Shown here: piece after piece, positions 8,335 to 26,040 of the stretch
How the letters are laid out: every line of letters starts with the position of its first letter
Position numbering within the stretch: position 1 is the first letter of the stretch
Source: Microcaldota archaeon
Lineage (GTDB): Archaea; Micrarchaeota; Micrarchaeia; Micrarchaeales; Micrarchaeaceae
Direction: 5' to 3'
DNA: 33,040 nt
NCBI GenBank assembly: GCA_021800515.1
Contig: JAJYYU010000005.1
Span: 1 to 33,040 of the forward strand
Made by a program: the position numbers and the translations under genes
The notes under the pieces: generated by a model
Told to the model about the DNA's origin: nothing
What the model saw: the letters and a program-made list of their open reading frames with translations, nothing else
The model's database searches: none

Positions 8335-9081
8335 TTATGCGCTGGTTATATGCTTTGATTTTTTTTCAGAATACATTCTTTTATCTGCTTTCATGTACAG
8401 CCTAAAATAATACTTCCTAAATAAGTTCTGCATTTGTGCACTGCTTTTAATTTCTAATTTATCTGAAATATCTGTATTATCATCCTTTAAGTCTGAGAAG
8501 CCCATGCTTACGCTGATGTTATTTTTTTCAAAAGCTTCTTTAAGTTTAAGTTCAACTGTGTGCACATCCTCAAGGCCACTATTTGCTGTTATAACAACGA
8601 ATTCATCGCCGCCTATTCTGCATATGGTATCTATGCTACGTGTATTTTTTTTGATTACATCTGCAGTGCTCTTTATGATCCTGTCTCCTTCTTTATGGCC
8701 TTTGGAATCATTTATGACTTTAAGATTGTCTATGTCTATCAGGAGAAGACCAAAGTCACGGTTTTCCCTTATCGCTTCTTCAAACTGTCTCCTCATTTCA
8801 AATTTTAGCAGGTTTCTATTGCCTACTTTTGTAAGAGGGTCGATCATCGCCAGTTTGTCAAGTTTTTTATTTTTCGTTTTTAATATTTTAATCTCCTTTT
8901 TGCACTCCTCAATCCTTTTTTTAAGGATGCTAATTTTTGAGTTTAATAAATAATAATTATGTTTCTCATGCCCATCATTTTTCCCATAATGCATGCTATT
9001 ACTCTTATTATCTATAATTTCCATTATCAAAACATCCAAATAAAACAATATATCTTTATTAATAATTGCAACAATAATCAT
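8335..9081 (-). CDS. GGDEF-domain protein, predicted diguanylate cyclase
   Basis: 248 aa as drawn. A second ATG at 9024 (residue 20) is the likelier start, because AGATATATTG at 9055-9046 sits about 25 nt before it; that gives 229 aa. After a Lys/Glu coiled coil (about 45-78) comes a complete GGDEF domain: DPLTKVGNRN (81-90), metal-binding D116-I-D118 with the N124-D125 substrate residues, inhibitory RSID (148-151), and GGDEF (157-161). ADKRMYSEKK closes the domain. All catalytic and I-site residues are intact, so c-di-GMP synthesis is predicted. There is no TM, PAS or EAL domain. Its 3' end is 30 nt from tRNA-Ala, and it diverges from a K+ channel gene. GGDEF proteins are rare in archaea, so recent acquisition from bacteria is possible. 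Confidence 0.92.
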   Translation of the reverse strand: MIIVAIINKDILFYLDVLIMEIIDNKSNSMHYGKNDGHEKHNYYLLNSKISILKKRIEECKKEIKILKTKNKKLDKLAMIDPLTKVGNRNLLKFEMRRQFEEAIRENRDFGLLLIDIDNLKVINDSKGHKEGDRIIKSTADVIKKNTRSIDTICRIGGDEFVVITANSGLEDVHTVELKLKEAFEKNNISVSMGFSDLKDDNTDISDKLEIKSSAQMQNLFRKYYFRLYMKADKRMYSEKKSKHITSA

Positions 9082-9874: not shown

Positions 9875-10756
9875 ATGGAGTTATTTCTTATTAGGATTGC
9901 AAGCCTGCTTGCAGTTGGCATTATATATATGTTGTTTGACATATTTAATAATCGTGATATACCCTCATCCACAGTATATCTACTTTTAGCGTATTCTGTA
10001 GTGTTGACGGTTCTTTACCTGAATGTAAGCATAATTTTAATGAGCGCATTGGTGGCCATAGGGGTAATTGCATTTGGATATATCATTTATAGGGTAGGCC
10101 TTATAGGTTTCGGTGATATTACTGAGCTGGCAACCCTTTCATTAATTTTCCCTTTTTTTAATAAATCATTGTTGTATTCTATAACTCAGCTTAATATCCC
10201 TTTTGTTATTTCTTTGATACTTAACGCAGGGTTTGTTGCAATAATCTTAATACCTATTTTTTATTTGGCAAAATATAAGATAAGACTCAAAAAACCTATT
10301 TTAAAATCAGTGACAGATAGAACAGCATTAAAGGCTGCTGTAATTGCAGCAATGTACTCTCTATTTTTGGTTTTTCTGGCTCTCTCATTTGGCGTGTTCT
10401 ATCCGGGCATTGCAGTAATCAGCATCTTTGCAGCATTCTCAATAATAATGCTTTTGTTTGAGAGGGCCATAACTGATTCCATGGTTGAATATGTTGGCAT
10501 TAAAAAATTTGAGGAAGATGAATTGATAGCAATGAACATGCTTAGCCAGCAAGAAATTGTTAGACTTAGAAAAAAACTGAAACATTTTGGCAGGCTTATT
10601 ACTCCGGCGCTTATAAAAGAAATGAAGCAAAAGCATTTTAATAAAAAGTTACCTGTATACAAATCTCCAATCCCGTTTGCAGCAATGATATTCGTAGGTC
10701 TTGTCGCAACAATTTTATTCGGGAATATTCTATTTTTGGTAATTCCAGGGCTCTAA
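9875..10756 (+). CDS. Archaeal type IV prepilin peptidase (A24 family, FlaK/PibD-like)
   Basis: 293 aa. A membrane aspartic protease that removes the leader peptide of archaellin and pilin-like proteins. The first catalytic Asp is in FDIFNNRDIPSSTVY (the usual 'D...r.IPn..' context). The second is in the G-x-G-D motif GFGDI at about residues 85-89. TM segments fill about 5-25, 30-75, 105-135 and 150-200. A cytoplasmic stretch (EEDELIAMNMLSQQEIVRLR) and a final TM introduced by SPIPFAAMIF match the C-terminal part of archaeal A24 peptidases. Its likely client here is the pilin-like protein at 15724. No archaellin operon is in the window. Confidence 0.85.
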   Translation: MELFLIRIASLLAVGIIYMLFDIFNNRDIPSSTVYLLLAYSVVLTVLYLNVSIILMSALVAIGVIAFGYIIYRVGLIGFGDITELATLSLIFPFFNKSLLYSITQLNIPFVISLILNAGFVAIILIPIFYLAKYKIRLKKPILKSVTDRTALKAAVIAAMYSLFLVFLALSFGVFYPGIAVISIFAAFSIIMLLFERAITDSMVEYVGIKKFEEDELIAMNMLSQQEIVRLRKKLKHFGRLITPALIKEMKQKHFNKKLPVYKSPIPFAAMIFVGLVATILFGNILFLVIPGL

Positions 10757-15023: not shown

Positions 15024-15551
15024 TTATACTGCACTTTGATAATGTAATTTTTTCTCAAATAAATTCTTCCTATGCTGTGTCTGCATTTTTGCATATGCTG
15101 ACCCATGATTGAATCCGTTCATTATATTGTTTACAGCTATTTCCGCTTCTTCTATCTGGTCAGTATTTCCTATAAATGAGACAGTATTGCCGTATACGCA
15201 CATTTTAACGCCTGTAATTCTTTCAATATACTTCTTTGCTTTTCCGTCCTTGCCTATTATCCTTGCTTTTACCTGCATCAGTCTTTTTTTGCTTCCGAAT
15301 GCCTGCTTTATGTTTATCTGTGAAAAATAAAAGTTTTCATTTTCAAGGAGCTTTGCAGTATTTAGATCAAAGCCCCTGCTGAACGCAAGTATAATATTTT
15401 TTACAAGGAATTCATTATAAGGGTCTGCAGAAATATATATAAGGTTTTCATTGATATCTATTTTGCAGCTATAATCCTTTTCGAGGATGCTGCTTATATC
15501 CTTTTTTTTGAATTCATATAATTTTTTATATGAAATGTTTATTTCCTGCAT
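15024..15551 (-). CDS. KH-domain RNA-binding protein, Dim2/Pno1-like
   Basis: 175 aa, the usual size for archaeal Dim2. Residues 1-80 form a divergent first KH domain without a GxxG (EINISYKKLYEFKKKDIS). The second KH domain (about 90-150) has the RNA-binding loop in RIIGKDGKAKKYIERITG, then VYGNTVSFIGNTDQIEEAE. The tail HGSAYAKMQTQHRKN matches the 'HstvYkfLerk' ending of this family. It is a probable small-subunit rRNA maturation factor that binds the 3' end of 16S rRNA. It leads a minus-strand unit with the 132-aa gene. Confidence 0.85.
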   Translation of the reverse strand: MQEINISYKKLYEFKKKDISSILEKDYSCKIDINENLIYISADPYNEFLVKNIILAFSRGFDLNTAKLLENENFYFSQINIKQAFGSKKRLMQVKARIIGKDGKAKKYIERITGVKMCVYGNTVSFIGNTDQIEEAEIAVNNIMNGFNHGSAYAKMQTQHRKNLFEKKLHYQSAV

Positions 15552-15723: not shown

Positions 15724-18300
15724 ATGAAAAATATAAAACTGCCAAAAGTTCAAAAAAATAAGCAGCAGTCTGCAGTTGAGTTTCTATCAACTTATTCCTG
15801 GACATTTCTTGTGCTTGCAATGCTTATTGCAGTCCTCCTCTTTTTCATTTCACAGAAATCACCTGTGAACTACCTGCTGAACCAATGCTTCCTTACATCG
15901 CAGATAACCTGCCTTCAGGATATAATCACTACGAATTCGACAAACATCCTCTTTGCTGCAAAGCTTAACAATTATCTCGGATACTCTTCATTGACATATC
16001 TACAGTTCGGAGCGAATTCAATAAATGTGACTCTTACAGGAATCGGCAAAAACGGGACTAACATATTCTATGGGAACTGCTATCCTATGAACACACTTGT
16101 GCCGTATGCAGGACAGACATTCTGCATTGTGAAGATTCCAAAACAGTTTGTACCAAAGCAGGGCCAAAAGATCTCAGCGACATACCAAATTTCATATAAT
16201 ATATGCACAAGTGGAGAAAAGTGCGTATCATCTCATTCATATTCTCAGTCAGGTTACACATACCTGAGCTTTGGAGGCGATTTCGCAGAGTTCGTAGCGC
16301 TCAGCGCAGGAATGCCTACTCCTCAGAATCCTATAATAGGTATAGGTCAGTCAGTAACACTGCATGAGGACGCATATGGAGGAATTACTCCGTATACATT
16401 CACATGGTTTTCAGGGCAGTCATCAAACTGCACAAAGGATTCATTATATGCTGGCAATGTCAGTCAGATAACAGTTTCTCCATCATCGTCAACATATTAC
16501 TGCTACAGTGTTTCTGACAACTACAACCAATATGCGATTTCTCCTGCTGATTTCGTTCAGGTTGTGCCTCCGCCTGCGCCATTGCCAAACGAGGTATTTA
16601 CATATGGCACGCAGCATACGCTTACAGCGACAGCGCAGCTTGGCTCTGATACTATTGAAATTCTTGTAAACAACAAAGTAGTTGCATCAGGAACAGGTAC
16701 TGCTTCGTACACAATATGCAGCGCAATGACAATGCAGACATGCCTTGCGAATGCAACATATTCTGTGGAAGCATACGAAGTGCAGACAAACGAGTATTCA
16801 TCACCGTCAGTGCTGACAATACAGAAGGCTGCGCCGCAGCTAAGCCTAAATTCCCCAAGCAATTTCCAATACACGGGAAGCGGCGGAACGATTAACTATG
16901 GAATAGGCACTCTTGGAAATCAGGCTCTTGCAATGCTTTACGTGAATGGAGGGAATGCAGGATCAACATATACTTCAGCATCATACACAACATCTGCTTC
17001 AGCAGGAACATACAATATATATCTGCAGACAAATGGAAACCAGAACTACACAGCAGCAAGCAGAAGCGCAAGTTTTACGATTTCGCTATCATTCTTATTT
17101 TCAGGGACGATTTATTTTAATAGTACTTATTCTTCATCATGGGTCATGGTCCCGCCTCCAAGCAGCATATGGACTTCCCCTTTTATAGGATGCATTTCTT
17201 GTTCTTCTGGCTATTACGCGCCTCCAACAGGAGGGCCTTATTCAGCGCCACCAATTTATTATAATCCGTTGAGTGGTATATCTGGTTCTGCATCCGGCTT
17301 TAATTATGTTTCAGGTTCCGGCACCGCCCTGAATTTTTACTATACATATTCAAATTGCACAACGGACTATTGGGGATACTCTTCTTGTACTAATTATGCA
17401 AATAGTGCAGGAAATATAAATCTAGGCAATGTTTATACATCCGGTTCAGCAACTAATTTTAGTTCAGTTTCAGGTTCCGGCACCACCTTGAATTTTGGTA
17501 CTGACGTTATCAATCTAATAGGAGCTTTTGCATCAGGTTCAGTATCTGGTGGGCCATTTAGTTCAGTTTCAGGCTCCGGCACCGCCCTGAATTTTTATGG
17601 AAGCTACATCTGCACTAGTTGGGGGTATGTTTATAACCTCTATCAGGAGTGGGGAGGTTATACATATGAGTGCAACGGTGGTTATTATCCTTTTGCTGGT
17701 ACTATAAATCTAAGTCCAGGCCCTACATTCGAAGGCGGATTCGTACCAAATCCTTTGTATCTGCTTACCCAAACGATAGACCTTAAAGGTTCTGGTAAGA
17801 GTATAAACGAAGTGCAGAATAATTACGGGTATAATTTCCAAGATAATCTGTTCATGGGCTATGGCAATTCATCGTCGACAATCGCATCGATAACTTATCA
17901 TCGTTCATCTAATTACTTTTCAGGCGGAATGACCTTTTATTTTTCTGACCCATATGCTTGGAATTGGTGCCACTGGGAAAATTTAGACCAGGCTTCCGGC
18001 GATTATATAGGACCCCCTCAATATGTCCAACTCACTACTTCAGGGGATACCATATATGGCACTGCATCAGGACAAGATTTTCATGTATACTGGCATGGCA
18101 ATTACGGCGGGCATTCAAGCAGCTGCTCGCAAATCCAATGGTCTGTAGGGCAGATAATCTATAATCCTAGTTCAAAGACTTTTTCAGGACAAATCCAAAT
18201 AGAGGAAAACCAAAATTATTATATTTATTTAGTAGGCTCTGGAAATAACATATATGCTGTAGCAAACGGAAAATACATAGGCGCCGTCATCGTAAATTAA
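15724..18300 (+). CDS. Large pilin-like surface protein with Ig-like domains and SGSGT repeats
   Basis: 858 aa. The basic leader (residues 1-14) and QSAVEFLSTYSWTFLVLAML (from 15) match the archaeal type IV pilin class III signal, with Glu at mature position +5 and a long hydrophobic helix. The -1 residue is Gln instead of the usual Gly/Ala. Next comes a Cys-bearing domain, then Ig-like domains: GGITPYTFTWFSG... ending YYCYSVSDNY, and another ending NQNYTAASRSASF. From about 450 it is a Gly/Ser/Tyr-rich region with three VSGSGTxLNF repeats, then a unique Trp/Tyr-rich end. Sequons are frequent. It is the likely substrate of the prepilin peptidase at 9875, and the first of five genes in one direction. 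AAAGG lies at about 15708-15712 before the ATG. Confidence 0.82.
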   Translation: MKNIKLPKVQKNKQQSAVEFLSTYSWTFLVLAMLIAVLLFFISQKSPVNYLLNQCFLTSQITCLQDIITTNSTNILFAAKLNNYLGYSSLTYLQFGANSINVTLTGIGKNGTNIFYGNCYPMNTLVPYAGQTFCIVKIPKQFVPKQGQKISATYQISYNICTSGEKCVSSHSYSQSGYTYLSFGGDFAEFVALSAGMPTPQNPIIGIGQSVTLHEDAYGGITPYTFTWFSGQSSNCTKDSLYAGNVSQITVSPSSSTYYCYSVSDNYNQYAISPADFVQVVPPPAPLPNEVFTYGTQHTLTATAQLGSDTIEILVNNKVVASGTGTASYTICSAMTMQTCLANATYSVEAYEVQTNEYSSPSVLTIQKAAPQLSLNSPSNFQYTGSGGTINYGIGTLGNQALAMLYVNGGNAGSTYTSASYTTSASAGTYNIYLQTNGNQNYTAASRSASFTISLSFLFSGTIYFNSTYSSSWVMVPPPSSIWTSPFIGCISCSSGYYAPPTGGPYSAPPIYYNPLSGISGSASGFNYVSGSGTALNFYYTYSNCTTDYWGYSSCTNYANSAGNINLGNVYTSGSATNFSSVSGSGTTLNFGTDVINLIGAFASGSVSGGPFSSVSGSGTALNFYGSYICTSWGYVYNLYQEWGGYTYECNGGYYPFAGTINLSPGPTFEGGFVPNPLYLLTQTIDLKGSGKSINEVQNNYGYNFQDNLFMGYGNSSSTIASITYHRSSNYFSGGMTFYFSDPYAWNWCHWENLDQASGDYIGPPQYVQLTTSGDTIYGTASGQDFHVYWHGNYGGHSSSCSQIQWSVGQIIYNPSSKTFSGQIQIEENQNYYIYLVGSGNNIYAVANGKYIGAVIVN
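17281..17597 (+). repeat. Three ~60-bp repeats inside the pilin-like gene
   Basis: Units at about 17281-17339, 17440-17498 and 17533-17597 share the core GTTTCAGGTTCCGGCACC, followed by GCCCTGAATTTT or the close variant ACCTTGAATTTT. They encode SGS....VSGSGTxLNF. The spacers between units differ in length and in Cys/Tyr-rich content. The near-identical cores at DNA level imply recent duplication or gene conversion, a common source of surface-antigen variation. Confidence 0.8.
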
Positions 18301-18352
18301 TAAAAATAGGAAGGAGTATATGAAAATAAAAATAGGAAGGAGTATATGAAAT
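18301..18352 (+). repeat. 26-bp tandem duplication carrying the ribosome binding site
   Basis: 18301-18326 and 18327-18352 are the same apart from the last base: each contains AGGAAGGAG then TATATGAAA. Each unit thus provides a strong Shine-Dalgarno and an ATG. The second ATG (18346) starts the 181-aa protein. The first (18320) starts a 9-codon minigene. Confidence 0.9.
18320..18349 (+). other. 9-codon minigene MKIKIGRSI, overlaps the next start
   Basis: ATG at 18320 with the SD GGAAGGAG just upstream opens a frame encoding MKIKIGRSI and stopping at TGA 18347-18349, which overlaps the ATG of the following gene (ATGA). Its GGA-AGG-AGT codons are the second copy's SD. It could act as a translational coupler or be a passive by-product of the duplication. 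Confidence 0.5.
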
Positions 18353-18891
18353 TAATCTATGGCATTTTAGGATTAGCAATTATTGCAATTATTGGCGTTA
18401 TTCTTTATAATATTTATGGATTTAGAGCATCCGGCCAAATAACCAGCCTTAAACCTGCCTCCGCATCTAACGCATCCCCCATCAATTCATTTCCATTGCA
18501 GTTAAATGGCTTTAATAAGACTGCTGCGGAATCAGTTCCGAATACAGGATTAGGCAATGTTTCTTTGCAGATTTACAAAAATCTAACAACAAATTCCACA
18601 ATTAAAATAAAACAGTATATTAATCAGAATGCCGCAACTGCTAATAATATTTACGCTAAATTGTCATCAAATATTTCTGCTATTTTTTCCGCGAACAATA
18701 TAGAGTTTAAACGAATCCCAAATTTACCCCCAAATTTTAATGGTGCATTTGAAATTTATAATAGCCATTACGTGTATTATTTAGTTGCATTTAATAATGC
18801 CACTGCATGTACTTTAAATTATACCTCGACTAAAAATATCTCTATAGCGTTTTTAGAAAGCCTAACAGCAGTTTGTTTGTATCTTAAATAA
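18346..18891 (+). CDS. 181-aa membrane-anchored secreted protein, unknown function
   Basis: N-terminal hydrophobic anchor at residues 3-24 (LIYGILGLAIIAIIGVILYN), then an extracellular part with many sequons (NAS, NKT, NVS, NLT, NST, NIS, NAT, NYT). It has two Cys near the C-terminus (ACTLNYT and AVCLYLK) that could form a disulfide. The soluble part (NVSLQIYKNLTTNSTIKIKQ through FEIYNSHYVYYLVAF) looks like a small alpha/beta fold. I recognise no family. It is the second gene of the five-gene run, 45 nt after the pilin-like gene. Confidence 0.75.
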   Translation: MKLIYGILGLAIIAIIGVILYNIYGFRASGQITSLKPASASNASPINSFPLQLNGFNKTAAESVPNTGLGNVSLQIYKNLTTNSTIKIKQYINQNAATANNIYAKLSSNISAIFSANNIEFKRIPNLPPNFNGAFEIYNSHYVYYLVAFNNATACTLNYTSTKNISIAFLESLTAVCLYLK

Positions 18892-18916
18892 ATAGCCAAA
18901 ATAAGGATGATCTAAT

Positions 18917-19579
18917 ATGAAATTAATTAAAATAATTAAAACCCAATTAAATGCAATGTTCTCTCCAAATAACATATCTAGTAAAGCCATGAGTATGAAG
19001 CAGGCATGGGTATATTTTTATATTTTAGCTGCGCTTTCGATTCCTTTTTATATGGCAATGAATTTTATTACACATTCTGTGTTTATTTATTCTTTTACTA
19101 AAATATTATTTGTAAATATTCTTGGCATTCAAAATGCGCCTTTTTTTGCGTATATGGTCGTGTCTCCATTTATTTTTGTTGGCTTTTTATTTCCAATAAG
19201 CATAATCATTAACTCTATTTTCTTTCATGGCTTCGGGAAATTCGTTTTTAAGACCTTTAATAAAGGGTATAATGCAACACTGACCGCCGCAGTATATGCA
19301 GGCGCGACAGGCGCGACTTTAAGGTGGATTTTAATCCCATTCTTATTGCTTTCATTCAATACCCTTTATTTGGTAATAGTGGGGTATTCTGTTGAAATAC
19401 TTGCAATAATCGTGCTTTTCTTTGCTCTTGCTTCCTTGCATGGCGTTAAAAAAAGGAAGGCATTCGCAGTTGCGGCTGGAATCGCAGTGATAATCATAGC
19501 AGTTGTTGTATTTTTAGTAACAGTTTTACACTGTCCATTCCATCCTGGAATCTGCTATATTGTAGGCGCGTTTTATTAA
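18917..19579 (+). CDS. Yip1-like membrane protein, paralog 1
   Basis: 220 aa, about five TM segments after a cytoplasmic N-terminus of ~28 residues. The hallmark of the Yip1 superfamily is the loop FHGFGKFVFKTFNKGYNATL followed by AAVYAGATGATLRW. Compare the bacterial/archaeal Yip1 pattern 'h...g.fg..a.....f..tf.a..Ya..P..l'. The C-terminal part (CPFHPGICYIVGAFY) has two Cys not found in the paralogs. Yip1 proteins act in membrane organisation or trafficking in eukaryotes; in prokaryotes the role is unknown. Overlap with neighbours is nil; spacers are 25-33 nt. Confidence 0.75.
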   Translation: MKLIKIIKTQLNAMFSPNNISSKAMSMKQAWVYFYILAALSIPFYMAMNFITHSVFIYSFTKILFVNILGIQNAPFFAYMVVSPFIFVGFLFPISIIINSIFFHGFGKFVFKTFNKGYNATLTAAVYAGATGATLRWILIPFLLLSFNTLYLVIVGYSVEILAIIVLFFALASLHGVKKRKAFAVAAGIAVIIIAVVVFLVTVLHCPFHPGICYIVGAFY

Positions 19580-19612
19580 TTTATAATGTATTATTTTATA
19601 TAATTCTGTATT

Positions 19613-20284
19613 ATGCAAGGTGATAAAATGTTTATTATTGATGAAGTCATAAAACAATTGAAAATTGCATTTTTCCAAAAAGATTCAATTCAGTTAATGG
19701 ATAGCAAGGAATCGGTTATATTTTTTTTGAAAATAGCCGCCTTCATAATACCTATTTATATCATACTTAATTTTGTTTTTCATTCCTATTCAACAATCCC
19801 ACTAAATATTTTAAATACTTTTTTAACTTTTAATTCTAAACTTCAGGTATCAAATATATTTATACCTGAAATAATAAGCCCATTTCTTCTTGTTTTGCTT
19901 TTCTATCCTCTAACAATAATTGTTAACTTTATTTATTTTACATTTTTTGGAACATATATTTTCAAAGTATTTAATCACGGATACAGTGCATTGCTGAGCG
20001 CAGCAGTTTATGCTGCTGCAAATGCCGTCCTATTAAGGTGGCTTGCGCTGCCTTTTGAGCATTTTAATAGCCTATCGGCCCCGATTATCTTAGTAATTAC
20101 CGGCTTAATTTGGCCGATAGCAGTATTTTTTTATGCTTTAGTCAATCTTGAAAATTTAAGTCAGTCTTCAAGAAGGCTGGCATTAACTGTTGTAATGTGC
20201 GCCTTGTTATTCCTCTTATATTTCTTATTAACCTTGATAATAGGAAATCATCCTATAATACAATACTTTATTCAATATTTTTAG
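19613..20284 (+). CDS. Yip1-like membrane protein, paralog 2
   Basis: 223 aa, or 218 if the ATG at 19628 (MFIIDEVIKQL) is used, which fits paralog 3 (MFIISALKKQL). It has the same layout as paralog 1: an N-terminal cytoplasmic stretch, about five TMs, FTFFGTYIFKVFNHGYSALL and AAVYAAANAVLLRW. These blocks align without gaps with the other two, so the three arose by tandem duplication, but overall divergence is high. The duplications are not recent. Confidence 0.75.
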   Translation: MQGDKMFIIDEVIKQLKIAFFQKDSIQLMDSKESVIFFLKIAAFIIPIYIILNFVFHSYSTIPLNILNTFLTFNSKLQVSNIFIPEIISPFLLVLLFYPLTIIVNFIYFTFFGTYIFKVFNHGYSALLSAAVYAAANAVLLRWLALPFEHFNSLSAPIILVITGLIWPIAVFFYALVNLENLSQSSRRLALTVVMCALLFLLYFLLTLIIGNHPIIQYFIQYF

Positions 20285-20305
20285 AGGCCAGGTACAGATT
20301 TATTA

Positions 20306-20965
20306 ATGTTTATATTAGATAGCATGTTTATAATTAGCGCCTTAAAAAAGCAATTAGCAATAACCTTCAGCTTAAAAATACCTAAAAAGCATATGAGTTT
20401 TACTCATTCCATTATTTATTATTTGCAACTTGCCATAATATTTATTCCGATATATATTTTGGTAAGCTTTGCTGCAAATCAGTTGGCTATTCCCGTACCC
20501 CCTGCGTTTTTAAATATTTTCGGGCTTAACGCTACTTCTTATTTTAATCTTTCAAAAGTATTAATTTCATTTTTATTTGTGCTTGTTTTCTTTCCTCTGA
20601 GTGCTATTGTTAATACACTTTATTTCCATTTTTTTGGAAAATTTGTATTTAAAGCATTTAAAAGCAATATTAAAGCAACATCGACAGCAGCAGTATACGC
20701 AGCTTCAAATGCAATTGTATTAAGATGGATAATGCCATTTTTATTAAGTCCCCGCACAATATCAATATACAACAAACTTGATCTTATCATTTTGGGCTGG
20801 TCAACAATTGTATTTGCAGTTTCATTGATTAAGTTGCATAAAATAAAATCATTTGTGGATATTATTTCTTTAATTGCGCTTATCATGGCGCTATATGCCA
20901 TTTACCTATTTCTGAATTCCTTGACAACTTCTGCCGTCATTCATTTTCTTCTTTTATGGTTTTAA
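20306..20965 (+). CDS. Yip1-like membrane protein, paralog 3
   Basis: 219 aa, or 213 from the ATG at 20324. It conserves FHFFGKFVFKAFKSNI and AAVYAASNAIVLRW. About five TM segments. It closes the five-gene run and ends 15 bp before the left end of the IS66 element, so any sixth gene or terminator of the operon could have been displaced by the insertion. Its 21-nt spacing from paralog 2 supports co-transcription. Confidence 0.75.
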   Translation: MFILDSMFIISALKKQLAITFSLKIPKKHMSFTHSIIYYLQLAIIFIPIYILVSFAANQLAIPVPPAFLNIFGLNATSYFNLSKVLISFLFVLVFFPLSAIVNTLYFHFFGKFVFKAFKSNIKATSTAAVYAASNAIVLRWIMPFLLSPRTISIYNKLDLIILGWSTIVFAVSLIKLHKIKSFVDIISLIALIMALYAIYLFLNSLTTSAVIHFLLLWF

Positions 20966-20980
20966 ATGTAACAATTCAAG

Positions 20981-22474
20981 AATCTTACGGTTTCGAGGGA
21001 AAGTCTGATCTCAGTATATTTAATAGATTTTCCATATAATTTTGCCCTTGCAATTTAGATGTCATATACATAGACATCTGCATTGCATAGCTATTCATGT
21101 TATCCATTCCTCTACTCTGTTGACTTACTCTTCGTTTTATTACCATTGGTCTCAACATTCTCTCAGCCAGGTTACTTGTCGGATCTACTTCTTTATATTG
21201 AAGAAAAGTGAACCGCTCACCATCAAACTTCATTATGTAATTTATAAGTCTCTTAAAGTTCTTTCCTTCTGTTGGAGCAGATTGAAGTAATTTCCATAAT
21301 TTATCATCATATGTTTTACGTAATTTATTGGAAACGTCGTTGTTTTTCTTTGCAATCTTTCCATCATGGAACAAAAGCGAAAGCTTCTTTACGAATAACT
21401 TATATTCTTTATAACTTTCACCATTGCCGAAGTCATATAGAGGATTCTTTGCCCTTCGTAATGAATGCGACCAATCCCGTTGTATATCTGAAAGGCCATT
21501 ATATCCTGCATAACCGTCGACTACATCAGTACCGTGATTACTTGCGAGTTTTTTTGCAACTTTATGGCTCCTTTGTTTCTCTATAGTATAATATGCCCAT
21601 TCTTTAGTCGCAACTACCCACGCCCAGAAGTTTTTTCCATTATGTCTGTGAGAAGTTTCATCTTTGTACCTTGCATTCGCTGCTTTTACCTTCCCGAGCA
21701 GTTCTTCATGATATGGTCCTAAGTAATATTTCAACCGTTTCAAAGTATTTGTTACGCTCCCTTCAGATATGTTTAATCCAAACGATCCAAACAAAGCAAC
21801 TATGTTACTTATAGTCATATTTGTTGCAGTATACAAATATGAAATTAAGACCATCGTAGTAATATCAAACTCTGCCTTTGGTAACGTATCTGGAACAGGT
21901 GCATCGAATATCTTTCCGCAATCGCTGCATTGATATATTTCACTTTCATGTTCCACATTTTCGAATTTTGGAAGTTGAATGTGTATTACAATTCTTTTTC
22001 TGGTGGATTTGCCCCTTCTTCTTGCTTCACCCCCGCATTTAGGACAATGAGGATCTTCAATAGAATGGTAATCTTGTCTATCTATATGACTAGACCGCGC
22101 ATTTCTGTTGTTTTCCTTCGGTTCAGATTTGTTATCTTCGGAAATCTTTGAGTACTTTTCAACAGTATTTTCAAGTTTCTTTTTCATGTATGAAGGTATT
22201 GCACCTGAGGGTGTATTTTCATTCACGTATTTGCGCAGTTCGTTGTTGAGTTGTTTGACCTTTAATGCCAATTCTTCTACTGTTTTTTGCAGTTTTTCTA
22301 TTATTCTATCTTTCTTATTGTTTTCCTTTTTCAAAAGGTCCATTTCATTCAACAAGTCTGCATAAGACTTATCCATCTGTTCGCCAATATTTATTTGTAA
22401 ATAAATAATGAATAAGTTATGGGAAAAAAGCAAGTAGTGGAATTCTTATTAAAAATCAAAATAATCGTAAGATT
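20981..22474. mobile_element. IS66-family insertion sequence, apparently intact
   Basis: About 1.49 kb bounded by short imperfect inverted ends: AATCTTACGGTTT at 20981-20993 and AATCTTACGATTATT read inward from 22474. The single transposase gene ends inside the left end. No 8-bp target repeat is visible at these limits, so the outer limits are approximate. It lies between the Yip1 run and the UbiA gene. Confidence 0.65.
20985..22376 (-). CDS. IS66-family transposase
   Basis: 463 aa from ATG 22376 (MDKSYADLLNEM); an upstream in-frame TTG at 22433 would add 19 residues that look untranslated. Domain order: coiled coil (1-50), linker, zinc finger CPKCGG...CSDCG (about 112-153), then the IS66 DDE catalytic domain. 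Catalytic residues visible are D in YKDETSHRHNG, D in VVDGYAGYN, and E in NLAERMLRPMVIKRR. No frameshift or stop is seen, so the enzyme may be active. The stop codon TAA overlaps the terminal inverted repeat (CCGTAAGATT). TTATTTATTTAC, about 30 nt before 22376 on the minus strand, fits a promoter. Confidence 0.9.
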   Translation of the reverse strand: MDKSYADLLNEMDLLKKENNKKDRIIEKLQKTVEELALKVKQLNNELRKYVNENTPSGAIPSYMKKKLENTVEKYSKISEDNKSEPKENNRNARSSHIDRQDYHSIEDPHCPKCGGEARRRGKSTRKRIVIHIQLPKFENVEHESEIYQCSDCGKIFDAPVPDTLPKAEFDITTMVLISYLYTATNMTISNIVALFGSFGLNISEGSVTNTLKRLKYYLGPYHEELLGKVKAANARYKDETSHRHNGKNFWAWVVATKEWAYYTIEKQRSHKVAKKLASNHGTDVVDGYAGYNGLSDIQRDWSHSLRRAKNPLYDFGNGESYKEYKLFVKKLSLLFHDGKIAKKNNDVSNKLRKTYDDKLWKLLQSAPTEGKNFKRLINYIMKFDGERFTFLQYKEVDPTSNLAERMLRPMVIKRRVSQQSRGMDNMNSYAMQMSMYMTSKLQGQNYMENLLNILRSDFPSKP

Positions 22475-22510
22475 ATTAAACTCTTACTTTTAAATAATTC
22501 TGTGCATTTA

Positions 22511-23392
22511 ATGAATTTAAAACAAAAATTTACATTTGTTAATGATTTGTTATACCTTCCGCCCCTTGTAATAATATTGCCCGCGCTTATTTTAGGTTTT
22601 ATTTTATCTAAGTATTATAATCTCATTGCTATTGCTTCAATACTGTTATCATTAATAATAGTAGACATTTGCGCAAATTTACTCAATAACTACAAAGATT
22701 GGGAAATTGATAAATTAAATAAAAAAAGGGAGATGCTGCATAAAATATTAAAAAAGAAACAGATTTTGCATTACTTTCTCATCTTATTTTTTATATTAAT
22801 TGCATTTTTAATTATGCTTGCTACTTTTTTCCTAGCTCAAATAAATATTTATTTTATTATAATGGTATTTATTACATTTTTTTTAATTATCGCGTATTCC
22901 TCTTTTCTAAAATTAAAGGATAAATACATTTTGAATTATGTAACTTTAGGGCTGTCTTACGGCGTAGTCCCTTTTTTGATAGGCTTCTTCTTTGGAACGA
23001 ATAACCTATTAAAATTGATTCCTTTTATCCCCCTATTGATTTTTATTTTTTTGACTGATTTCAGTTATAGCATCTCAAAAGATTATCCTGATATAAAAGG
23101 CGACAGACATTTCAAAAAAAATACCTTGCCTGCATCACTTAAGAATTTAAGAGCCTTTAACATTCAATTTATAATGATCGGCATTGCATATGCCTTTTTG
23201 CTATTTGGCGTTATTTTACGCATATTCAATAGTTTTTATCTGCTTTTATTTGCCTCATTTATAATTCAGATTTTAATTCTTAATAAGACGATTAAATCCT
23301 ATAATGTAAAAAATAGCAGAAAAATGCATTTTTATACCCAGCTTAATGAATCTATAATACGATTAATTATTTTGTTTATCATATTCTTATAA
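22511..23392 (+). CDS. UbiA-family prenyltransferase
   Basis: 293 aa from ATG; an in-frame GTG at 22502 is possible. Polytopic, about eight TMs. Both Mg-prenyl-diphosphate sites are present: NNYKDWEID (NxxxDxxxD) at about residues 60-68, and KDYPDIKGDRHFKKNTLP (DxxxDxxxD type) at about 191-208. It transfers a prenyl group to a lipid or polyene acceptor. The next gene, 103 bp on, resembles CruF, and in haloarchaea a UbiA enzyme (lycopene elongase, LyeJ) and CruF together make bacterioruberin. Other UbiA roles, such as archaeal ether lipids, remain possible. Confidence 0.85.
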   Translation: MNLKQKFTFVNDLLYLPPLVIILPALILGFILSKYYNLIAIASILLSLIIVDICANLLNNYKDWEIDKLNKKREMLHKILKKKQILHYFLILFFILIAFLIMLATFFLAQINIYFIIMVFITFFLIIAYSSFLKLKDKYILNYVTLGLSYGVVPFLIGFFFGTNNLLKLIPFIPLLIFIFLTDFSYSISKDYPDIKGDRHFKKNTLPASLKNLRAFNIQFIMIGIAYAFLLFGVILRIFNSFYLLLFASFIIQILILNKTIKSYNVKNSRKMHFYTQLNESIIRLIILFIIFL

Positions 23393-23495
23393 TTAAATTT
23401 GAATAAGAACTTTTGATAAAATATATCTTCCTATTTGTTAATAAAACTTGCAGAGCGTTGCGCTATAGAAAAATTGCCTATTTATTGCTGGTATT

Positions 23496-24257
23496 ATGGC
23501 TAAATTAAAATTGATTTACAGATTACCCCTTATTTTAGGATTTATTGCTATAGTCAGTATACTAATAAATGGGCTTTTCTTCTTTATTTTCATGATTTTG
23601 TCCATGACCTTATTTGTTTTTATCTGGAGGCCATCCTATAAACTTTTTATCTTATCCGCAATTATTGGATCATTGCTTGAAATAATAAATTTAAAAACAG
23701 ACGGGTTTCTTGTCGGTTTATACCGATATAATGTGCATCCTCTTATTTTTGGTGCTATCCCAGTTCAACTAATTATCTGGTGGGCTATTATCGTCTACAT
23801 ATCATATACTACTGTTTCGGCATTTTTTAAAAATAAGATAATAAATTTATTCTTAGTGCCCTTATTAGCAAGTATGTTAGAATTAGTTAATGAGCCTGTT
23901 TCAGCAGATTTGCATATTATTACATGGATAGTAAAAGGCACTGTTATATCTTGGTATGGTATTCCATGGACTGATTTTGTAGGCGTGTATGTCGGCGTAT
24001 TTATAATAATGGCGTTATTTTATTTATTGACTAGAAAAGAAAAAGCCAAGTCTGCAAATAAAATAATGAAAAATTATCCCTTATTATATCTGTCATATAC
24101 TTTTTTTTATTTTATTCTTTTTATAAATTCAAGTATAAAATCGCCTGTAGAATATGGGTTTATTATAATTTTATTAGTTGTTATAGCTTTGTTTTTTGCT
24201 TCTAAATATAGTGATGAAATTAAGCAATTTTTAATATCCTATAAAGAAGATGATTGA
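23496..24257 (+). CDS. CruF/DUF422-like membrane protein (carotenoid hydratase family)
   Basis: 253 aa, about seven TMs. Features shared with the DUF422 family: SLLEIINLKTDGFLVGLYRY followed by HPLIFGAIPVQLIIWWA, LLASMLELVNEPVSAD followed by ITW, and WYGIPWTDFVGVYVG. These correspond to the family's 'E..g...g.fg.Y.Y', 'P.....W', 'lDl..dPva...g.W.W' and 'yyGiP..Nf.GW' blocks, with Glu where Asp is common. Known members hydrate the psi-end of C50 or C40 carotenoids. The adjacent UbiA gene strengthens the idea. No CrtD/CrtI-type gene is in the window. Confidence 0.6.
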   Translation: MAKLKLIYRLPLILGFIAIVSILINGLFFFIFMILSMTLFVFIWRPSYKLFILSAIIGSLLEIINLKTDGFLVGLYRYNVHPLIFGAIPVQLIIWWAIIVYISYTTVSAFFKNKIINLFLVPLLASMLELVNEPVSADLHIITWIVKGTVISWYGIPWTDFVGVYVGVFIIMALFYLLTRKEKAKSANKIMKNYPLLYLSYTFFYFILFINSSIKSPVEYGFIIILLVVIALFFASKYSDEIKQFLISYKEDD

Positions 24258-24282
24258 CAATAAATAAAATGGAGTGAAACTT

Positions 24283-24885
24283 ATGGCTGCAAATAATAAT
24301 GTGAATGCAGTGTTCTATGAAAGCAGGCAGCACTGCTGCAAGAATAATGAGGCTATGGGCGCATATCGTAGTTTTGAAGATAGAATCAACCACGGAAAAA
24401 AAGGGCTGACGTCAGGCAGCGCAATCAAACGCTGGGTCGCTGTGGCTTCTTTTTTGATATTTTTGCTACCGCCCACAGCCGCAGCCAGCGCTGCGCCCTC
24501 TGCTTATGCTATTCTTCCGGCTGCGCAGGCCAATGCCCCTGTTTCTAAGCATCAGCACTACATGAATTCAAACAATGCCCAAAGCCCCCTTCTAAAAGGA
24601 AAGGAATCCTTAAAATCTGGATTTAACCGCGATTTAAAAGCCTTTGTTCGCATCGTCTCTAAAACCGTCTCTGATCCAGACACCCTCAATTGGGGGAGAT
24701 TGAAGGCGATCGAAAAAAAGCTGTCATGCGATGCGAGAAAAATCGATTCTGCATCGCAGTATCCCACATTGCATGCAGTGGAAAAATTGAAAAAATTCAA
24801 AGCGACTAAACATGCCCGAAGCGGTTTTTCAATGCGGAGTTTCATTAGGCGGCCAGATGTGCGTAAGCTTATAGGGGATTTTTGA
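24283..24885 (+). CDS. Ala/Lys-rich orphan protein with one hydrophobic segment
   Basis: 200 aa from ATG 24283, chosen because GGAG at 24271-24274 sits 8 nt before it; GTG 24274 is an in-frame alternative. The N-terminal ~50 residues are polar with two Cys (HCCKNNEAMG), then one hydrophobic stretch (RWVAVASFLIFLLPPTAAAS) with an Ala-rich continuation that looks like a cleavable or stalk region. The rest is Lys/Arg-rich. No family is recognised. Base composition is visibly richer in GC than the genes before it, which suggests a different origin or selection. It converges on the DUF99 gene with a 20-bp gap. Confidence 0.6.
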   Translation: MAANNNVNAVFYESRQHCCKNNEAMGAYRSFEDRINHGKKGLTSGSAIKRWVAVASFLIFLLPPTAAASAAPSAYAILPAAQANAPVSKHQHYMNSNNAQSPLLKGKESLKSGFNRDLKAFVRIVSKTVSDPDTLNWGRLKAIEKKLSCDARKIDSASQYPTLHAVEKLKKFKATKHARSGFSMRSFIRRPDVRKLIGDF

Positions 24886-24905
24886 TTTGCTTTCGGTTTC
24901 CATGC

Positions 24906-25541
24906 CTATATCCTGCCTTTTGACTCCCCTGTCTTGACGCCCCTTGCAATCATATGCGACAGTCTCAGCAGCTCAAAGCACTGCGCTATGCTGCTTCTCA
25001 CATCGCCTATTTCTTTTCTTGTTTGTATATAAAGCCCTTGTTCATGAAATACTTTTCTTGCATTTGCCTTTTCAACCAATAGCCTCTTTTCATCTGCTCC
25101 TCTGTTTCTTTTCCCAGTAGTGCTCTCGCTTCTGTACGCTTCTATCGCGTCTAGCAGCTTCGAAGGCCGCGGTTTATCCCTTGTTATGATTATCACATCA
25201 ACTTTTAGCTTTTTTTCTAAAAGGCCTACATCAACCACGTTCAAACCTGCAAGCGCTATGCCGTTGAGCGCAATGATTTTTATCTGCTCTTTAAATCTTG
25301 ATTTTGAGATCATGCGCAGTATCTCCCTTGTAGCGTTGCTTCCGTCGCATTCAATATAGCATGAGAGCACTCCTTCTATAGCGCCTTTTCTTCCGATTAT
25401 TCCGATTGCGAGAGTATCTGCTCCTGGTTGCTTTCCCCCTCTTTTTCTTGCGATAGGTCCGCTTGTTATTGCGATAATTCTTGCTCCGGGTTTGATTGCT
25501 TTCTGCTGAATATGTATTGTGTCGCTTTTATTTGTTTTCAT
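24906..25541 (-). CDS. DUF99 (UPF0215) family protein
   Basis: 211 aa. Diagnostic block: IIALNGIALAGLNVVDVGLL followed by KVDVIIITRDKPRP, matching the DUF99 'lnGi.fgGfNvvDi..l...tg.PvivV.rk.P' pattern. The N-terminal part (ALGI-like DTLAIGIIGRKGAIEGVLSC) is the first beta strand region of a fold related to endonuclease V/RNase H. No experimentally established role is known to me. It lies downstream of rpo11 in the minus-strand run, with a 223-nt spacer. Composition is more GC-rich than the ribosomal genes. Confidence 0.8.
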   Translation of the reverse strand: MKTNKSDTIHIQQKAIKPGARIIAITSGPIARKRGGKQPGADTLAIGIIGRKGAIEGVLSCYIECDGSNATREILRMISKSRFKEQIKIIALNGIALAGLNVVDVGLLEKKLKVDVIIITRDKPRPSKLLDAIEAYRSESTTGKRNRGADEKRLLVEKANARKVFHEQGLYIQTRKEIGDVRSSIAQCFELLRLSHMIARGVKTGESKGRI

Positions 25542-25676
25542 GATGTGTGCTTTATGAGGATTTTTATTATTGATTTATTTGCTGGCTGCCATGATATAGA
25601 ATATGCCAATTATTTTTCTGCTTTCGCAGAGCAAGCCTCTTTTTGTAGTTTTGCCTGCGTACGACCCATTTCAGTA

Positions 25677-25705
25677 CCTTTTGATGCATCAACAAAGCAT
25701 CAAGG
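25677..25705. other. Hairpin in the rpo11-DUF99 spacer
   Basis: CCTT-TT-GATGC (25677-25687) pairs with GCATC-AAGG (25697-25705): nine pairs with a TT bulge. The 25542-25764 spacer otherwise holds only short basic or broken frames, none convincing. It could terminate the ribosomal operon on the minus strand or be a processing site. Confidence 0.4.
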
Positions 25706-25764
25706 CACTGTCTATTTTTTAGTCCATGCCTGTTCTCTTTTTTGTTGGCGTAAACTCAGTAATA

Positions 25765-26040
25765 TTACTTACTTGCCTTCTCAAGGCTTTCCCTTAAGCT
25801 TTCGAATGATTCCTGAAGCCCCTCAATTGTTTTCTTCAGCACGTCCTCTGCTTTTTTGCTGCCTGTTTTCAAGACGAGCACGGGCTTGCCTATTTCAGGA
25901 TGCTCTTTTGTAACGCCTGCGAACTCTACGTCTTTTGATTCAATTAGAGTGTCAGCGATTAAATCTGCTATTGTTATATCGTTTGTATCAAACTCAACAT
26001 GCAGTTCCTTTGGCTCCTTTTTAAGTATATTGATTTTCAT
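25765..26040 (-). CDS. rpoL: DNA-directed RNA polymerase subunit Rpo11 (RpoL)
   Basis: 91 aa, the normal size. It is the small partner of Rpo3 in the archaeal RNA polymerase assembly platform. The conserved segment LHVEFDTNDITIADLIADTL (first part of 'D.HTl.NLL...L', here degenerate) is followed by VEFAGVTKEHPEIGKPVLVL (typical 'V.fAgY...HPl...p.l.i.T'), then a C-terminal amphipathic helix (GLQESFESLRESLEKASK). It follows S5 by 55 nt on the same strand. Confidence 0.9.
   Translation of the reverse strand: MKINILKKEPKELHVEFDTNDITIADLIADTLIESKDVEFAGVTKEHPEIGKPVLVLKTGSKKAEDVLKKTIEGLQESFESLRESLEKASK

What the first reader, a model, noticed from the sequence alone, without database searches (positions are those of the whole stretch)
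15724..20965. Five-gene pilin-like / secreted / triple-Yip1 run, a candidate new surface system
One co-directional run with 21-45 nt gaps holds a large class III-signal pilin-like protein with Ig domains and repeats, a small anchored glycosylatable protein, and three tandem Yip1-like membrane paralogs. No ATPase or platform (PilB/PilC) gene is present. The combination of a pilin-like adhesin with several Yip1 proteins is not a system I know. It could build or position a cell-surface or host-contact structure.
Basis: partly seen in the sequence, partly recalled or inferred. Interest (0 to 1): 0.75.

Follow-up and report, generated by a model that had tools for sequence, protein, structure and literature searches.

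The report
Swappable-tip pilin cassette in Micrarchaeota
A tiny, probably host-dependent archaeon carries a surface-fibre gene whose stalk part is kept nearly identical between copies, while its tip part has been swapped together with neighbouring membrane-protein genes, between loci and even between species, which looks like a way of changing what the cell sticks to.

Summary
The five-gene run is real: 858-aa class III-signal pilin-like protein (PIL), 181-aa anchored protein (SML), and three Yip1-like proteins (YIPA-C), with gaps of 21-45 nt. It is a Micrarchaeota genome. The run recurs complete in one sister species. A second sister has PIL, small anchored protein and one Yip1 in that order at two separate loci.

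The more important result is in the DNA. PIL has two parts. The base (codons 1 to about 454) is homogenised between loci: paralog dS 0.12 within a genome, against 0.4-0.9 between species. The tip (codons 455-858) is unalignable or at most 44% identical between loci, and one tip type occurs with an SML and a YIPA relative at two different loci. Between two species (dS about 0.9 at control genes) the tip, SML, YIPA-C and flanking genes up to about 25,885 are 98-100% identical (dS 0-0.02). This block starts at the base/tip junction. A KH|MERK gene junction conserved in 22 of 27 relatives is split, with its halves next to different cassettes.

Best reading: a recombining adhesin-tip module carried by the cell's ordinary archaeal type IV pilus machinery, encoded elsewhere. 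Functions of SML and Yip1 are inferred. Outside the genus, Yip1-pilin linkage is not significant.

The parts
15724..18300 (+). PIL: 858-aa class III-signal pilin-like surface protein
   Evidence: ORF; QQSAVEFL motif plus hydrophobic helix; AF2 N-terminal helix and beta head; PIL search has matches in 59 of 60 related genomes, most of the best ones to the N-terminal ~180 aa
15754..17087 (+). Conserved, recombining base of PIL (codons ~11-454): signal, pilin head, Ig-like part
   Evidence: Paralog dS 0.12 within G003 against 0.4-0.9 between species; last dense G000/G001 mismatch at 17087
17088..18300 (+). Variable tip of PIL (codons 455-858), Gly/Ser/Tyr/Asn-rich
   Evidence: Unrelated tip in G003:C4, 44% identical tip in G003:C68; 99% identical DNA in G001
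18299..18355 (+). 26-bp tandem duplication (2.2 copies) carrying the ribosome-binding site and ATG of SML; creates a short MKIKIGRSI upstream ORF
   Evidence: absent (single copy) in G001
18346..18891 (+). SML: 181-aa N-terminally anchored, sequon-rich extracellular protein
   Evidence: relatives in cassette 2 of G003 and a separate paralog in all four congeners
18917..19579 (+). YIPA: Yip1-like membrane protein, partner type of this tip
   Evidence: groups with G003:C68 Yip1 100/98
19613..20284 (+). YIPB: Yip1-like membrane protein
20306..20965 (+). YIPC: Yip1-like membrane protein, UbiA-side member
   Evidence: 78% identical to the single Yip1 of G003:C4, clade 100/100
17088..25885 (.). Recently exchanged block (tip, SML, YIPA-C, UbiA, CruF-like, 203-aa gene, Endo_dU), 98-100% identical to G001 over nearly all its length, apart from IS66
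   Evidence: baseline 78-83%
20968..22487 (-). IS66-family insertion between YIPC and UbiA, with 8-bp target duplication TTTTAAAT (20960-20967 and 22488-22495)
   Evidence: PF03050 E 1.9e-27; absent in G001, ends read
9875..10756 (+). Candidate prepilin peptidase that could process PIL (same window, not in the cassette)
   Evidence: PF01478 E 0.0019, below Pfam cut-off
15024..15551 (-). KH-domain gene (KRR1-like), divergent flank of cassette 1; its order-wide partner MERK now lies beside cassette 2

Best explanation
A swappable-tip adhesin cassette. PIL is a pilin-like subunit: a constant base (class III signal, membrane helix, beta head, Ig-like part) lets it be processed by a prepilin peptidase and loaded onto, or anchored beside, the cell's general archaeal type IV pilus machinery, which is encoded elsewhere in the genome. 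The C-terminal ~400 residues form the variable tip that contacts a host or neighbour. Similar copies of the base at two chromosomal loci act as homology arms. Recombination between loci and between co-resident species replaces the tip together with the genes directly downstream: a small anchored extracellular protein and one or more Yip1-like membrane proteins, which I take to be tip-specific assembly, export or anchoring partners. The three Yip1 genes here are best read as accumulation by such unequal exchange. SHOWN: gene order; two-locus organisation; base homogenisation; tip replacement; interspecies block starting at the base/tip junction; separation of KH from MERK onto different cassettes; pilus ATPase and platform genes in trans. 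INFERRED: filament or tip placement, adhesion to a host, cognate action of SML and Yip1, co-transcription, and homologous recombination (rather than a site-specific recombinase) as the agent.
For: Order PIL-small-Yip1 at two G003 loci and PIL-SML-YIPA-B-C in G001. G003 base paralogs 95-99% identical in DNA while tips are unalignable; dS 0.12 against 0.59-0.62 to the window. The same tip type occurs with an SML relative and a YIPA relative at different loci (window locus 1; G003 locus 2): tip 44%, SML 29%, YIPA 50% identical, with YIPA clade support 100/98. Window against G001: base dS 0.34, tip 0.018, SML 0, YIPs 0.007-0.014, Endo_dU 0.02, against rpS5 0.92 and NFACT 0.87; switch at 17087/17088. 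KH|MERK junction conserved in 22 of 27 relatives but KH lies at cassette 1 and MERK at cassette 2 here. Second pilin copies at assembly breaks in G001 (127-bp exact overlap) and probably G000 (C22 stops just before, C15 starts just after the cassette). Duplicated bases in other genera: G015 95.5%, G055 81-93%, G053 87%. Pilus ATPase and platform genes in trans. Sequon enrichment in all three small proteins.
Against: Only three distinct cassettes could be read, so tip/SML/Yip1 co-travel rests on few cases. G003:C4 pairs an unrelated tip and small protein with YIPC, and YIPC may simply belong to the UbiA side. The exchanged block also carries UbiA, a CruF-like gene and Endo_dU, so selection may have acted on those. 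Tip fold unknown (AF2 pLDDT mostly <50). No binding, filament or transcript data. Genomes are metagenome bins; loci 2 of G000 and G001 are not assembled. Outside the genus pilin-Yip1 linkage is not significant.
Confidence: 0.55

Rival explanations
1. An ordinary duplicated surface-protein gene next to unrelated membrane genes: the five genes are neighbours by chance or weak co-expression, and the mosaic reflects generic recombination among repeats without functional meaning.
For: Yip1 genes outside the genus sit in varied contexts, several next to CDP-alcohol phosphatidyltransferase genes, and pilin proximity there is not significant. The exchanged block includes housekeeping genes.
Against: PIL-small protein-Yip1 order is kept at two loci with different flanks in G003 and in G001; the cassette Yip1 proteins form one exclusive clade (100/99); sequon-rich small proteins are kept even when not recognisably homologous (G003:C4).
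Confidence: 0.25
2. Tip with cognate membrane partners in the style of polymorphic effectors: the conserved base displays a C-terminal domain that acts on neighbouring cells, and SML plus the Yip1 array are matching protective proteins, with extra Yip1 copies retained from earlier tips.
For: Conserved N-terminus, variable C-terminus, immediately downstream genes that change with it, and a tandem array of diverged Yip1 paralogs.
Against: The tip is ~400 aa, Gly/Ser/Tyr/Asn-rich and partly repetitive, more like a binding surface than an enzyme; no effector domain match; Yip1 is not known as a protective family.
Confidence: 0.12
3. Membrane-remodelling/vesicle cassette related to the archaeal Yip1 (arCOG02054) - SpoIIM-like - small membrane protein loci near S-layer genes; PIL is an S-layer-like cargo.
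For: Makarova et al. 2015 (PMC5898192) describe Yip1 in three/four-gene cassettes with fast-evolving small membrane proteins and S-layer genes in Archaeoglobi, Methanococci and Thermococci.
Against: No SpoIIM/COG1300 relative, AAA+ ATPase or ABC transporter was seen in the run; PIL carries a class III pilin signal rather than a Sec signal with S-layer anchor.
Confidence: 0.15
4. Assembly artefact: near-identical pilin copies caused the assembler to join base and downstream parts of different loci or species.
For: Several contigs end inside or beside pilin copies.
Against: Window and G001 contigs agree on the whole five-gene order yet differ by ~0.5%, an IS66 copy and a 26-bp duplication, and both run through to ~84%-identical flanking DNA.
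Confidence: 0.1

Closest known systems
PilV shufflon of I-complex plasmids (R64, TP114; PMC9045228)
   Same: Type IV pilin with a constant N-terminal part (345 aa in TP114) and exchangeable C-terminal adhesin segments that set partner specificity.
   Different: No recombinase gene was recognised among the window proteins scanned; exchange appears to use ~1.1-1.3 kb homologous bases at separate loci and between species, and downstream genes travel with the tip.
Neisseria pilE/pilS pilin variation (from general knowledge)
   Same: Homologous recombination between a constant 5' part and variable 3' parts of pilin copies.
   Different: Here the copies look like full genes with their own downstream partner genes, not promoterless silent fragments; a truncated base-only copy was seen only in G053.
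Archaeal type IV pilins with class III signals and the PilB/PilC-type machine, as in Ca. Mancarchaeum Mia14 (PMC5498576)
   Same: Class III signal, membrane helix, beta head; ATPase and platform genes in the genome.
   Different: PIL is 858 aa, far larger than a standard pilin, with a variable tip and SML/Yip1 partners.
Archaeal Yip1 (arCOG02054)/SpoIIM-like/small membrane protein cassettes (PMC5898192)
   Same: Yip1-family protein next to a fast-evolving small membrane-anchored protein and a surface protein.
   Different: No SpoIIM-like protein here; partner is a pilin-like adhesin; lineage-specific.
Diversity-generating retroelements of DPANN (from general knowledge)
   Same: Diversify a surface or adhesin-like C-terminal region in host-dependent archaea.
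   Different: No reverse transcriptase recognised among the window proteins scanned; whole tips are replaced rather than point-mutated.

Membership tests
Archaeal type IV pilin (class III signal) | Class III cleavage motif followed by N-terminal hydrophobic helix | tested here: met
   QQSAVEFLSTYSWTFLVLAMLIAVLLFF; AF2 helix 17-43
Archaeal type IV pilin (class III signal) | Beta-rich globular head | tested here: met
   Confident strands 62-182; PDB fold matches generic Ig-like only, none below E 0.001
Archaeal type IV pilin (class III signal) | Assembly ATPase, platform protein and prepilin peptidase available | tested here: met
   T2SSE and two T2SSF on G000:C5; peptidase candidate at 9875-10756 is below Pfam cut-off
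Archaeal type IV pilin (class III signal) | Forms or joins a filament | not testable with these tools
   Needs microscopy or proteomics of filaments
Yip1 domain family (PF04893) | Profile match above curated cut-off | tested here: inconclusive
   YIPA 26.8 against 28.6 bits, YIPB/YIPC none; genome relative on C10 over cut-off; 33 of 48 relatives match at E<=0.01
Yip1 domain family (PF04893) | Multi-span (about five helices) membrane topology | tested here: met
   Five long helices 27-52, 76-110, 118-145, 149-175, 179-205, pLDDT 90
PilV-type shufflon | Constant N-terminus with exchangeable C-termini | tested here: met
PilV-type shufflon | Dedicated tyrosine recombinase and short inverted sites next to the gene | tested here: not met
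   No integrase-like gene among window proteins scanned; only an IS66 transposase; junctions lie at the end of a >1 kb homology tract. Not searched genome-wide, and short sites were not searched for separately
Diversity-generating retroelement target | Nearby reverse transcriptase and template repeat | tested here: not met
   No RT among window proteins scanned; not searched genome-wide
arCOG02054/arCOG01996 membrane-remodelling cassette | SpoIIM-like (COG1300) partner | tested here: not met
   No such Pfam match in the run or neighbours scanned

The most novel reading that the evidence does not exclude
A recombination-driven tip-switching system of DPANN archaea in which an adhesin tip and its dedicated anchored and Yip1-type membrane partners are exchanged as one module between loci and between species, with chromosome rearrangements at the cassettes, possibly with the Yip1 genes acting as tip-matched partners kept in arrays. 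As far as my literature searches go it would be the first surface-variation system described for Micrarchaeota and a first function for archaeal Yip1 proteins.
Probability: 0.3. Interest if true: 0.85.

Novelty: new variant of a known kind. Interest (0 to 1): 0.62.

Why it matters
How ultra-small DPANN archaea recognise hosts, and how fast that can change, is open. This locus points to a concrete gene (PIL), a defined switch point (codon ~455), and two named partner families, so host recognition and its variation become testable. It also gives archaeal Yip1-like proteins a surface-assembly context, and shows that near-identical pilin bases break metagenome assemblies, hiding the variable tips that matter most.

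Tried and rejected
(1) Yip1-pilin association as an order-wide rule: rejected, 7/178 near against 8/438 far slots, p = 0.15. (2) SML outside the genus: no match in any of the genomes searched. (3) PDB sequence search with PIL and Yip1 profiles: nothing; fold search with the Yip1 model: nothing below E 0.001; with the PIL model: only generic Ig-like or beta-sandwich matches. (4) AF2 of full PIL: tip unusable, pLDDT mostly <50. (5) NCBIfam gave nothing useful for PIL, SML or YIPA, and PHROGs only weak hits. (6) Endo_dU-NFACT junction as an order-wide reference: it is found only in G002, so only the KH|MERK junction is used. (8) UbiA next to pilins in G055 and G024 looked like the window's UbiA, but is a different member (27% over part). 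(9) Literature: no paper found joining Yip1 and DPANN.
Full report
WHAT IS THERE. The five ORFs are at the stated coordinates, on one strand, with gaps of 45, 25, 33 and 21 nt. The genome has 803 kb in 49 contigs. Records holding two congeners' loci are titled Candidatus Marsarchaeota archaeon FK_Sedi_B_Bin.356 (identical in length and range to G001:C19) and Candidatus Micrarchaeota archaeon FK1.bin87 (same length as G003:C4). The names match the Fankou acid mine drainage samples of PMC5864196, which is an inference from the record titles. PIL has a class III signal and a hydrophobic helix. A search with it has matches in 59 of 60 related genomes, most of the best ones to its first ~180 residues, and its beta head is predicted confidently. 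SML is anchored and rich in sequons (9 against 3.7 expected). YIPA-C are 33-35% identical to each other and belong to a family in which 33 of 48 members match Pfam Yip1.

DISTRIBUTION. Of 164 genomes in the order, close relatives of these Yip1 proteins (>150 bits) occur only in this genus. G001 has the same five-gene order. G003 has, at the same locus (KH on one side, UbiA on the other), PIL - an unrelated small anchored protein - one Yip1 of YIPC type. At a second locus (NFACT on one side, MERK and LysRS on the other) it has PIL - SML - a Yip1 of YIPA type; that locus is read from two contigs, C57 and C68, that both end inside the pilin. NFACT, LysRS and MERK are my labels from sequence by eye and position; MERK is an uncharacterised ~184-aa protein. 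G002 has no cassette at either place. In a tree of 48 Yip1-like proteins the five cassette proteins form one clade (100/99), YIPA pairs with G003:C68 (100/98) and YIPC with G003:C4 (100/100). Elsewhere in the order, pilin-Yip1 proximity is not above background.

BASE AND TIP. In G003 the two pilin copies are 95-99% identical in DNA over codons ~35-365 and then become unalignable. Synonymous divergence between these two copies is 0.12, while each is 0.59-0.62 from the window's copy. Species-level values at other genes are 0.40 (KH), 0.67 (NFACT) and 0.92 (LysRS). Strong constraint alone would not lower dS this way; recent exchange between loci would. G001 carries a second pilin start at the NFACT locus whose contig overlaps the first copy by exactly 127 bp, as an assembly graph leaves at a repeat. 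In the window's own genome, contig C22 stops about 80 bp before, and contig C15 starts about 150 bp after, the place where the second cassette should lie. It is therefore probably present but unassembled.

THE EXCHANGED BLOCK. Window and G001 differ by 17-22% at control loci. In the base the identity is 83-97%. From position 17088 it is 98-100% through the tip, SML, YIPA, YIPB, YIPC, UbiA, the CruF-like gene, the 203-aa gene and Endo_dU up to about 25,885, apart from an IS66 element and with one stretch of the CruF-like gene at 95-98%. It then falls to ~84% in rpS5. dS is 0.34 (base), 0.018 (tip), 0 (SML), 0.007-0.014 (YIPs), 0.02 (Endo_dU), 0.92 (rpS5) and 0.87 (NFACT). The left end of the block, codon 455, coincides with the base/tip boundary seen independently in G003 (end of the shared ...AASRSASFTI). 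This is best explained by recent exchange between species with one crossover at the module boundary.

REARRANGEMENT. The KH gene is followed head-to-head by MERK (often then LysRS) in 22 of 27 other genomes examined. Here KH stands beside cassette 1 and MERK beside cassette 2. Together with the order NFACT-Endo_dU in G002, this fits a crossover between two cassettes. The reciprocal junction is supported by G002 alone.

GENERALITY. Within-genome duplicates of a pilin base also occur in other genera: G015 (95.5% over 534 nt), G055 (one contig flanked by inverted copies 92% identical over 572 nt, plus four further contig ends at 81-93%) and G053 (87% over 576 nt, one copy truncated without a tip). 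Their downstream genes could mostly not be read.

MECHANISM. Most likely PIL is a pilin-type adhesin whose base is recognised by the general type IV pilus machine (T2SSE and two T2SSF on contig C5). Its tip is renewed by homologous recombination that uses other copies of the base as homology. The small anchored protein and the Yip1 protein directly downstream go with the tip in the cases that can be read. Pili-like contacts between ARMAN cells and Thermoplasmatales (PMC5864196, PMC5498576) make host contact a reasonable target, but this is inference. The role of Yip1 is the weakest step: archaeal Yip1 proteins have been placed in membrane-remodelling cassettes near S-layer genes (PMC5898192), and in relatives of this genome several sit next to CDP-alcohol phosphatidyltransferases.

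LIMITS. Only three distinct cassettes are readable; all genomes are treated as metagenome bins; the tip fold is unknown; nothing is known of transcription. The recombination evidence is strong; the functional reading is moderate.

Noticed in passing
20968-22487: IS66-family element inserted 2 nt after the YIPC stop with 8-bp target duplication TTTTAAAT; absent from the otherwise 98-100% identical G001 block, so a recent insertion that separates UbiA from the array.
   Followed up: yes
18299-18355: 26-bp tandem duplication of the SML ribosome-binding site and start codon, single copy in G001; makes a 9-codon upstream ORF and could alter SML translation.
   Followed up: partly
8335-9081 (-): A GGDEF (diguanylate cyclase) domain protein, PF00990 E 1.9e-29, which is unusual for an archaeon.
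   Followed up: no
L069:9025-11009, L122:8835-10229, L148:8867-10234: In other genera the Yip1-like gene lies next to a CDP-alcohol phosphatidyltransferase gene (PF01066), hinting at a link between archaeal Yip1 and membrane lipids.
   Followed up: partly
L210:1-6913 (G055:C4): A whole contig flanked by inverted pilin-base copies (92% identical over 572 nt), enclosing two pairs of genes that look like nucleotidyltransferase-type toxin-antitoxin pairs by eye; could be an invertible segment.
   Followed up: partly
L271:3709-4098 (G053:C1): Truncated base-only pilin copy with no tip, 87% identical to a full copy on another contig; possible silent donor or remnant.
   Followed up: partly
L212:1-1229 and L227:3-2075: A UbiA-family gene (51% identical between the two) divergent from a pilin in two genera of two families.
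   Followed up: partly
L060:6646-7377: Paralog of SML kept at one conserved locus in all four congeners, close to an arginase-like gene and a CDC48-like AAA gene (identified by eye); possible ancestor of SML.
   Followed up: no
L068:3557-7110 (G001:C14): Another secreted protein - small anchored protein - Yip1-like order in G001, without a pilin signal.
   Followed up: no
L056:8746-9705: The tip of cassette 2 in G003 contains nearly identical ~70-80-aa repeats (96-98% DNA), so its copy number is unresolved at the contig ends.
   Followed up: partly
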